This document shows positions 20,428 to 22,690 of a stretch of 36,385 nucleotides of DNA, piece by piece. Below the pieces are notes generated by a model. The model saw only the letters and a list, made by a program, of their open reading frames with translations, was not told the origin of the DNA and searched no databases. Source of the stretch: an uncultured Bacilli bacterium. Lineage in GTDB: Bacteria > Bacillota_I > Bacilli_A > RF39 > UBA660. Location: assembly GCA_947632265.1 (NCBI GenBank), contig CANROP010000003.1, forward strand, positions 1-36,385, in the 5' to 3' direction. Both the position numbers and the translations under genes were made by a program. Each line of letters opens with the position of its first letter. The stretch's first letter is position 1.

Positions 20428-21882
20428 TTAATCAAATCTAATTTGAAAACCTTGATTTAAATCTAATTCTTGAATTTTCATTAATTCTAAATAAATTAAA
20501 TTGCTAATTTCTACTTTTGTTTCTTTTAATTTTTTTATGATTGTAGATCCATAATACAGAATAGTTAAAAGTAAATGAGCTATTTGCATAAAGTAATAGT
20601 TTGCCTTCATTCCATTGCTGTTAAATGTATAACAATGTTCTATGTTTAATACTTTAGATTTTTGCTCTTTAAAACCTTGATTTTCTATCTTCCAACGTCT
20701 TCTTCCAAAAATAACAATTTCTTCATAGTTTGCTTTAGTAATTTTTATTGATGTTACAAACATAAATGTTGATTCTTTTAAGTTTTTACTTAATTCTATA
20801 GGAGATTCATCTTGTTGTTGTTTATCAACTTCATCTTTAGAAGTATACTTTATAACATTAGTAATCCCTTCTGTATTTTTAGTTCCACTTCCAAATCCTA
20901 CTTCATTTACAAATTCATATTCATTAATTACATCTGTTTCTATATTATCAAATTCTTCCATAATAGATGACATCACTGATTCTTTATATCTTAATATGTA
21001 ATCCATTTTATGACTTTTACATGCATCCATAAAAGGTTTTTTTACATAAAGGGCATCTCCTCCAATTGTTATTGGTAATTTTGGATATGCATCTCTTATT
21101 TTATCGAGTAAACGATAAGCAGCTTTTAATTCACAATCTTGTTTTTCTGTTTCGTTATTCATATATTCGTTTTCAACAAATTCTGTTGCAAAGGAAAACA
21201 CATAATCTTTGCAAATAAGTTTTGCTTCTAAAACATAATATTGATATTCAGTATATTCATCATCTGTTCCTTTATTATATACTTTATAAATACAATTTTT
21301 TCCTAAATTAATGCGTGTAGAAAATAATCCAGAACCATCAATTACAATATAAAAGCTACCATTTGATAATCTAAATTTATCAAGAGTTTTTGATTCAATC
21401 AATTTTTTTGTTAATTTTGTTCTTAACTTATCGAGTTCTACTATATTAATAGAATTCATTACATTAGAAATAGTATCGTCACATGGAAATTCAGTTAAAT
21501 TTGTATCCAATATTTGATTAATATTAGATATAAATTCTACTTTATTTAATTTAGTCATAATTTCTTTCATACTTTGAATGCCACAACATAAAGCAATTAA
21601 TCGAATGACAGTAATTTCTTGCATACTGTATTCTGTATAAGATTGATTTCTAATGTCGGAAAGATTAGCTAAATCATTTAACAAATTAGGGAAAACATTT
21701 TTGAAAATAATAATTAATTGTTCTAAAGGATTGGTATGAGCTTTTAGTTCTCTAATCATTGTCTTAGTTAAAATTGGTTTTCCATTTCTTTGAGTTATAG
21801 CCTTTCTAACTCTTCGCTTAAAGGTTCTTTCTTGTTCGTGCTTTACTTTTTTATTTATTCTATTTTTTTCATTTTTTGTCAC
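20428..21882 (-). CDS. Transposase (IS4-superfamily-like DDE)
   Basis: IDGSGLFSTR, ITIGGDALYVKKPF, GRRRWKIENQGFKEQK; true start probably GTG 21882, track start lies in SD. Confidence 0.85.
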   Translation of the reverse strand: MTKNEKNRINKKVKHEQERTFKRRVRKAITQRNGKPILTKTMIRELKAHTNPLEQLIIIFKNVFPNLLNDLANLSDIRNQSYTEYSMQEITVIRLIALCCGIQSMKEIMTKLNKVEFISNINQILDTNLTEFPCDDTISNVMNSINIVELDKLRTKLTKKLIESKTLDKFRLSNGSFYIVIDGSGLFSTRINLGKNCIYKVYNKGTDDEYTEYQYYVLEAKLICKDYVFSFATEFVENEYMNNETEKQDCELKAAYRLLDKIRDAYPKLPITIGGDALYVKKPFMDACKSHKMDYILRYKESVMSSIMEEFDNIETDVINEYEFVNEVGFGSGTKNTEGITNVIKYTSKDEVDKQQQDESPIELSKNLKESTFMFVTSIKITKANYEEIVIFGRRRWKIENQGFKEQKSKVLNIEHCYTFNSNGMKANYYFMQIAHLLLTILYYGSTIIKKLKETKVEISNLIYLELMKIQELDLNQGFQIRFD

Positions 21883-21945
21883 TATAATCACTTCCTATTT
21901 TATAGTAACAGAAGTTCAACTTTAATTCAATACTTTGATTTATCC

Positions 21946-22016
21946 CGTAGAATTTTTATTCGGAGTTACTGATTTTAATATAGGGAACTTGCAAAAAATA
22001 TTCTTTTATGGTATTA
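21946..22016. repeat. 71-bp perfect direct repeat, copy 1
   Basis: CGTAGAATTTTTATTCGGAGTTACTGATTTTAATATAGGGAACTTGCAAAAAATATTCTTTTATGGTATTA; includes IS right end plus 45 bp of flank. Confidence 0.95.
21972..21980. repeat. Right target-site duplication of IS (ATTTTAATA)
   Basis: Matches 20255-20263. Confidence 0.7.
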
Positions 22017-22316
22017 CCCGAGTTTCGCACTTGTTGAAGCAAAAAATCACTATTTAGCCTAGTGTTTATAAGACTCTGTGGTGATCTTTATTTTGTATAA
22101 TCATATTGTAACGAAACAAATACTTATTATATCTAGGTTAAACTAATATTATCGTAAAAAATATAAAATGTAAATATCATTTAAAAAAATATGGCAAAAA
22201 TTTATATAAAATGTGTCTATGTTACAATATAATTATACTAAAAACTATTATAAGTAAATCCTCATAATATAAGGCTTGAAAGCCTATTTTTTCTTTTTTC
22301 ATCTGCGAAACTTGGG
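22017..22316. mobile_element. 300-bp MITE-like element with 13-bp TIRs, no ORF
   Basis: CCCGAGTTTCGCA ... TGCGAAACTTGGG (12/13); internal TTTGTATAAT and terminator AGGCTTgaaAGCCTATTTTTT. Confidence 0.5.
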
Positions 22317-22387
22317 CGTAGAATTTTTATTCGGAGTTACTGATTTTAATATAGGGAACTTGCAAAAAATATTCTTTTATGGTATTA
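22317..22387. repeat. 71-bp perfect direct repeat, copy 2
   Basis: Identical to 21946-22016. Confidence 0.95.
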
Positions 22388-22410
22388 TGTAATTAGCAAG
22401 AGAAATTGCA

Positions 22411-22507
22411 TATAATAAAAAAGGATACATTTGATTAGTGGAATCAAATGCTTCCCTTATTTGGAGTGCATTTGAAATCAACTGTTGTTGAAATCAAATG
22501 CTTTTTT
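22411..22507 (+). ncRNA. Candidate antitoxin/antisense RNA (~85 nt) convergent with the small peptide gene
   Basis: -10 TATAAT 22411-22416 (weak -35); hairpin CATTTGATT/AATCAAATG (22428-22450); hairpin GCATTTGAAATCAAC tgtt GTTGAAATCAAATGC (22468-22501) followed by TTTTTT. Confidence 0.5.
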
Positions 22508-22585
22508 CTATTTAACTAACAATATAAATATTATAGCAAGTAGAAGTAATATGATAACAAATTGAGATTTTTCTCTTTTAGTCAT
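22508..22585 (-). CDS. 25-aa single-pass membrane peptide MTKREKSQFVIILLLLAIIFILLVK, candidate type I toxin
   Basis: Start preceded by GGAAGGCGGTGAT-ATT-ATG; basic N-terminus plus 16-aa hydrophobic stretch plus C-terminal K; own promoter; not in the ORF track. Confidence 0.65.
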   Translation of the reverse strand: MTKREKSQFVIILLLLAIIFILLVK

Positions 22586-22661
22586 AATATCACCGCCTTC
22601 CTTTTATCTTTTGATAATTGAAAGGGAAAGCATCTGATATATTTCAAACGTATCCATAAAC

Positions 22662-22690
22662 ATTATATCAAACAAATGTTTTTTACACAA
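22662..22690 (-). promoter_or_regulatory. Promoter for the 25-aa peptide mRNA
   Basis: Minus strand TTGTGT-17-TATAAT with extended -10 TGA-TATAAT. Confidence 0.65.

What the first reader, a model, noticed from the sequence alone, without database searches (positions are those of the whole stretch)
22411..22690. Candidate unannotated type I toxin-antitoxin locus
On the minus strand, TTGTGT-17-TATAAT drives an mRNA of about 240 nt encoding the 25-aa peptide MTKREKSQFVIILLLLAIIFILLVK with a good SD (GGCGGTGAT-ATT-ATG). On the plus strand, a TATAAT (22411) could start an RNA of about 85 nt ending in hairpin+T6 (22468-22507), convergent with and antisense to the mRNA 3'UTR. Hairpins at 22428-22450 and 22468-22501 can terminate opposite strands. 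This matches the layout of TxpA/RatA- and BsrG/SR4-type systems (small hydrophobic toxin, 3'-overlapping antisense RNA), but I do not recognise the peptide.
Basis: partly seen in the sequence, partly recalled or inferred. Interest (0 to 1): 0.85.

Follow-up and report, generated by a model that had tools for sequence, protein, structure and literature searches.

The report
Multicopy bacterial type I toxin-antitoxin locus
This stretch encodes a tiny membrane peptide, probably a self-poison, and a small antisense RNA that should silence it; the same two-RNA unit is scattered up to about 20 times per genome across a large family of uncultured small-genome bacteria and seems not to have been described before.

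Summary
The 25-aa ORF, its promoter, Shine-Dalgarno (SD) site and the convergent antisense RNA are real. The antisense promoter was misplaced: it is TTGCAA-17-TATTAT at 22360-22388, not TATAAT at 22411, giving an RNA of about 113 nt. The locus is one of about 20 in this 1.23-Mb genome, with five peptide families (A-E) sharing one layout and one antisense promoter. A 72-nt model of that promoter hits 175 of 246 genomes (111 of 150 genera) of the same family, but only about 1 of 260 others in the class. Of 64 such loci tested, 53 carry a hydrophobic 20-40 aa ORF with an SD in the expected place, against 1% of random segments; dN/dS within families is 0.20-0.34. The toxin mRNA 5' end pairs with its own 3' end: cognate duplexes average -36 kcal/mol, cross-family -18, and 41 held-out mRNAs repeat this. 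B. subtilis bsrG mRNA folds the same way, so the best reading is a BsrG/SR4-like type I system with unrelated peptides. Toxicity, transcription and repression are untested. It is a new group of families of a known kind. Interest comes from abundance, diversity and lineage restriction.

The parts
22508..22585 (-). toxin-like ORF, 25 aa MTKREKSQFVIILLLLAIIFILLVK (family A): charged N-terminus, one predicted membrane helix
   Evidence: conserved in paralogues and relatives; family A dN/dS 0.23
22589..22597 (-). Shine-Dalgarno GGCGGTGAT of the toxin ORF, inside a predicted local hairpin
   Evidence: fold
22662..22690 (-). toxin mRNA promoter TTGTGT-17-TATAAT
   Evidence: conserved upstream of the mRNA start in relatives
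22412..22657 (-). toxin mRNA, about 243 nt (ends inferred from promoter and U-tract)
22644..22655 (-). 5' arm of outer 5'-3' stem (mRNA GGAUACGUUUGA)
22423..22434 (-). 3' arm of outer 5'-3' stem (mRNA UCAAAUGUAUCC); also 3' arm of the toxin terminator hairpin
22624..22638 (-). 5' arm of inner 5'-3' stem (mRNA AUCAGAUGCUUUCCC)
22443..22456 (-). 3' arm of inner 5'-3' stem (mRNA GGGAAGCAUUUGAU); also 5' arm of the toxin terminator hairpin
22417..22450 (-). toxin mRNA intrinsic terminator: hairpin 22428-22450 plus U-tract 22417-22422
   Evidence: the U-tract complement is near-invariant in 55 loci
22360..22388 (+). antisense RNA promoter TTGCAA-17-TATTAT, extended -10
   Evidence: model R1 hits
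22395..22507 (+). antisense (antitoxin) RNA, about 113 nt, complementary to the toxin mRNA 3' UTR and ending just before the toxin stop codon
22395..22410 (+). 5' hairpin of the antisense RNA (GCAA-GAGAAA-TTGC)
   Evidence: hairpin predicted in 59 of 60 relatives, with stem changes that keep pairing
22468..22507 (+). antisense RNA terminator: hairpin 22468-22501 plus T6
   Evidence: hairpin kept in relatives

Best explanation
A chromosomal type I toxin-antitoxin locus that works like BsrG/SR4 of B. subtilis. The minus strand makes a compact mRNA of about 243 nt whose 5' end pairs with its 3' end and whose SD lies in a local hairpin, so it is poorly translated (predicted). The plus strand makes an antisense RNA of about 113 nt, complementary to the mRNA 3' UTR. 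I infer that it pairs with the mRNA, probably starting at hairpin loops, and leads to RNase III decay. When the antisense RNA falls behind, a 25-aa membrane peptide is made and damages the membrane (inferred). The locus belongs to an expanded group of at least five peptide families that share the layout, the antisense promoter and the 5'-3' pairing. Shown here: sequence layout, conservation, coding constraint, covariation of the 5'-3' stem, lineage restriction. Inferred: transcription, translation, toxicity, repression.
For: Multicopy in own genome, with divergent peptides in the same layout. Present in all 16 genus genomes and 175 of 246 family genomes. 53 of 64 loci found by antisense promoter alone carry a hydrophobic ORF with SD in place, against 0.97% of random segments. 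dN/dS 0.20-0.34 in five families. 5'-3' duplex: cognate -36.1, other-family -17.6, shuffled -14.0 kcal/mol, cognate best in 42 of 45; held-out set -36.7 against -21.2, 37 of 41. Outer stem pairs in 187 of 198 cells, permuted mean 134, maximum 167 of 2000, including a within-family C-G to U-A double change (L044). Antisense 5' hairpin in 59 of 60. bsrG mRNA has the same 5'-3' helix, and its SD hairpin and 3' interaction with SR4 are published (PMC6562991, PMC7430163). Decay runs mostly one way in the own genome: six loci keep the antisense part without an intact toxin unit, and the one toxin lacking an antisense part also has a broken promoter spacing.
Against: No transcript, peptide or growth effect has been shown. 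In silico the SD stays closed both in the full-length and in the 3'-truncated mRNA, so no activation step is visible. Loci are related by descent, so permutation counts overstate independence; the cross-family and held-out tests reduce this but do not remove it.
Confidence: 0.85

Rival explanations
1. A Hok/AapA-like system: the 5'-3' pairing keeps the full-length mRNA inert, and trimming of the 3' end is required to open the SD; the antisense RNA then acts on the trimmed, active form.
For: The 5'-3' pairing is very strong and covaries, as published for aapA/IsoA (PMC6733600). Family E has a leader ORF with a strong SD overlapping the toxin ORF, which recalls mok/hok.
Against: Removing the last 45 nt does not free the SD in the predicted folds. 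The antisense RNA covers the 3' UTR, which trimming would remove. In Gram-positive systems such processing has not been seen (PMC6562991, PMC11228461).
Confidence: 0.15
2. A non-toxic small membrane peptide under antisense RNA control, kept for a regulatory or membrane-stress role.
For: Toxicity has not been tested. Peptides are conserved in sequence and loci lie between housekeeping genes.
Against: Copy number up to 20, five divergent peptides in one regulatory frame, and decay that tends to lose the toxin while the antisense part stays fit a harmful product better.
Confidence: 0.12
3. A MITE-like repeat that spreads without a gene function; the ORF is incidental.
For: Multicopy, short, intergenic; a repeated element lies next to the window copy.
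Against: dN/dS 0.20-0.34, conserved SD and stop, toxin-like ORF in 53 of 64 loci against 1% by chance; compensatory pairing between mRNA ends.
Confidence: 0.03

Closest known systems
bsrG/SR4 (and bsrE/SR5, txpA/RatA) of Bacillus subtilis
   Same: Convergent antisense RNA overlapping the mRNA 3' UTR; hydrophobic peptide; SD in a local hairpin (published, PMC6562991); long 5'-3' helix in the toxin mRNA (my fold of bsrG from SPBc2; helix P1 in PMC7430163).
   Different: No peptide homology found. The mRNA here is 218-272 nt and the antisense RNA about 113 nt, against 294 and 180 nt for bsrG/SR4. Here the outer 3' arm doubles as part of the terminator hairpin, whereas bsrG has a separate terminator. 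Chromosomal between housekeeping genes, not on a prophage.
aapA/IsoA of Helicobacter pylori and hok/Sok
   Same: Covarying 5'-3' long-distance pairing of the toxin mRNA; several chromosomal copies (aapA).
   Different: In hok/Sok the antisense RNA acts near the 5' end; here it covers the 3' UTR. 3' trimming does not free the SD in silico.
par (fst/RNAII) of Enterococcus faecalis
   Same: Convergent RNAs and a very small hydrophobic peptide (from general knowledge).
   Different: In par, direct repeats give the two RNA 5' ends complementary segments (from memory). Here the mRNA 5' end and the antisense RNA carry the same-sense sequence, so the mRNA end pairs with its own 3' end.
Clostridioides difficile CD2517.1/RCd8-type loci
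   Same: Multicopy chromosomal type I loci with convergent antisense RNAs (PMC6563280).
   Different: Peptides of 50-53 aa; here 21-30 aa.

Membership tests
Type I toxin-antitoxin systems | small hydrophobic peptide with one membrane helix and its own SD | tested here: met
Type I toxin-antitoxin systems | antisense RNA gene overlapping the toxin mRNA | tested here: met
   sequence and conservation only; transcription not observed
Type I toxin-antitoxin systems | toxin mRNA folded so that the SD is hidden | tested here: met
   prediction only
Type I toxin-antitoxin systems | peptide inhibits growth and the RNA prevents it | not testable with these tools
   needs expression experiments
BsrG/TxpA peptide family | sequence homology of the peptide | tested here: not met
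   no Pfam or NCBIfam match for families A-E at E up to 10 that is a type I toxin
BsrG/SR4-like regulation | 3'-overlapping convergent antisense RNA | tested here: met
BsrG/SR4-like regulation | 5'-3' helix plus SD hairpin in toxin mRNA | tested here: met
   prediction
BsrG/SR4-like regulation | RNase III-dependent decay of the mRNA-antisense duplex | not testable with these tools
Hok/AapA-like regulation | 5'-3' long-distance pairing in full-length mRNA | tested here: met
Hok/AapA-like regulation | 3' truncation opens the SD | tested here: not met
   mean SD accessibility much the same after removal of the last 45 nt (prediction)
Rfam families of type I RNAs | match at gathering score | tested here: not met
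   no match in the window

The most novel reading that the evidence does not exclude
The group is a genome-wide network: many paralogous loci share one antisense promoter and leader logic, orphan antisense copies protect in trans against related toxins, and the mRNA leader is a copy of the terminator, so that completing the terminator lets leader and terminator hairpins fuse into the closing duplex. Termination itself would then switch the mRNA to a silent form.
Probability: 0.2. Interest if true: 0.75.

Novelty: new member of a known kind. Interest (0 to 1): 0.62.

Why it matters
Type I systems are hard to find because they are short and lineage-specific. This group was invisible to the family libraries searched here, yet it is among the most frequent genetic modules found in these small genomes (at least 20 model hits in a 1.23-Mb genome). 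It gives tens to hundreds of natural variants of one architecture for testing how toxin, antisense RNA and mRNA fold coevolve, and the shared promoter model gives a practical way to annotate them in uncultured bacteria. It also raises the question of what such tiny genomes gain from so many addiction-like modules that are, as far as tested, neither on phages nor on plasmids.

Tried and rejected
1) TATAAT at 22411 as antisense promoter: rejected, not conserved and part of the U-tract complement. 2) Phage or plasmid origin: no match in phages or plasmids, none for two exact motifs in viral contigs. 3) Known peptide family: none. 4) Rfam: none. 5) RNAalifold on the antisense promoter alignment gave no consensus pair, because the 5' hairpin comes in two registers; per-sequence folding showed it in 59 of 60. 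6) MAFFT alignment of the outer-stem arms shifted registers, so pairs were counted in a script. 7) I first read family E as starting at an upstream ATG; the frames differ, so this is an overlapping leader ORF. 9) The organism could not be named: the only named record with a relative of the neighbouring protein is an uncultured Erysipelotrichaceae MAG, at 46% identity over 44 residues.

Full report
What is there. The plus-strand promoter is not. Alignment of 55 related loci shows a conserved TTGCAA-17-TATTAT with extended -10 at 22360-22388. The TATAAT at 22411 reads TAAAAT in about half of the relatives and is the complement of the toxin U-tract region. The antisense RNA therefore runs from about 22395 to 22507 and ends right before the toxin stop codon; it covers the 3' UTR and not the ORF.

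It is one of many. The locus has close copies in the same genome: C22 at 93% identity, C57 twice, C67 with the start codon ATG changed to ATT, and a fragment in C86. Short extra matches to the two promoters only led to paralogues with other peptides in the same place: A MTKRE..., B MxKKDFL..., C MRKSEKYLC..., D MKTKTF..., E MELVIAF.... In the window's own genome I count 12 complete peptide genes (C3, C22, C57a, C41a, C13, C5, C10, C19a, C83, C98, C14, C4b), six loci where the antisense part survives without an intact toxin unit (C67, C41b, C19b, C4a, C75, C12), and one toxin lacking the antisense part whose -35/-10 spacing is also broken (C57b). This asymmetry is what a harmful product would leave, but the numbers are small.

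How widespread. A 72-nt sequence model of the antisense promoter and 5' hairpin (R1) hits 175 of 246 genomes and 111 of 150 genera of the same family at E <= 1e-3, and 209 of 289 genomes in an order-wide draw, with every listed hit in that one family. In a class-wide draw of 298 genomes only one genome outside the family is hit (G557, of roughly 260 outside genomes). It carries a family D peptide near a contig end, so transfer or a binning error are both possible. The match is thus strongly restricted to one lineage. Genome names are withheld; the lineage is probably an uncultured order of Bacilli such as RF39 (inference from genome size and gene content).

Is the ORF a gene? Loci found by the antisense promoter alone, mostly in other genera, carry a hydrophobic 20-40 aa ORF with SD at the right distance in 53 of 64 cases; random segments of the same loci do so in 170 of 17579. 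dN/dS within families is 0.20-0.34 (family E is confounded by an overlapping leader ORF). No family is in Pfam or NCBIfam.

The RNA architecture. In 45 distinct mRNAs from the genus the first 50 nt pair with the last 60 nt at -36.1 kcal/mol on average; pairing with 3' ends from other families gives -17.6 and with shuffled 3' ends -14.0. The cognate 3' end beats every other-family 3' end in 42 of 45. In 41 further mRNAs not used before, mostly from other genera, the values are -36.7 and -21.2, 37 of 41. In the 11-bp outer stem 187 of 198 cells pair, against 134 +/- 9 (maximum 167 in 2000) when 3' arms are permuted, with double changes between families and one within family A (L044, C-G to U-A). 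Sequences are related, so these counts are not independent; the cross-family comparison is the safer part. In family A both arms of the toxin terminator hairpin also pair with the leader, so leader and terminator can each form a hairpin or fuse into one long duplex. The SD lies in a local hairpin with the early codons, with or without the 3' end. The antisense RNA begins with a small hairpin, often capped GAAA, in 59 of 60 loci.

How it most likely works. The published B. subtilis bsrG mRNA has an SD hairpin and a helix P1, and binds SR4 at its 3' end, followed by RNase III decay (PMC6562991, PMC7430163). I fetched bsrG from phage SPBc2 and folded it: its 5' end also pairs with its 3' region (-30.2, shuffled -22.2 +/- 3.8). 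So the nearest working model is BsrG/SR4. A Hok or AapA mode, in which 3' trimming opens the SD (PMC6733600), is less favoured because the predicted SD stays closed after trimming and the antisense target would be removed.

Setting. Neighbours of other copies are housekeeping genes (DNA polymerase III alpha, glmS-like, mutL, efp, a penicillin-binding protein, an AP endonuclease, clpP), and rarA lies near the window copy. No phage, plasmid or viral contig match was found. These look like chromosomal loci.

Literature. I found no paper on type I systems in this lineage in the held library. A 2025 paper states that type I systems were known only from Proteobacteria, Firmicutes and Tenericutes before its cyanobacterial case (PMC12390103). 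The library is incomplete, so prior description cannot be excluded.

Verdict. A real, intact-looking type I toxin-antitoxin locus of a new, expanded, lineage-restricted group; architecture like BsrG/SR4; function inferred.

Noticed in passing
window 21946-22016 and 22317-22387: A perfect 71-nt direct repeat flanks a 300-bp stretch (22017-22316) with imperfect inverted ends CCCGAGTTTCGCA / TGCGAAACTTGGG. The right copy holds the antisense promoter. Its left end resembles contig ends elsewhere in the genome and in G011, so it is probably a repeated mobile element.
   Followed up: partly
window 20428-21891 (-): IS4/IS1380-like DDE transposase gene beside the locus, below the NCBIfam equivalog cut-offs.
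   Followed up: no
L059, L060, L065, L066, L067, L051, L143, L144 (family E): A 28-29 aa leader ORF with a strong SD overlaps the toxin ORF in another frame, recalling mok/hok translational coupling.
   Followed up: partly
L024, L037, L038, L054, L056 and others, antisense -35 region: In many loci the antisense -35 sits in an inverted repeat followed by a T-run (such as GAACTTGCAAAAAGTTCTTTTTT), which looks like a terminator overlapping the promoter.
   Followed up: no
L038, L065, L066, G015:C6: Tandem arrays of two or three toxin-antitoxin units.
   Followed up: no
L153 (G557:C32): The only hit outside the family: a family D locus at a contig end in another family of the class, transfer or binning error.
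   Followed up: partly
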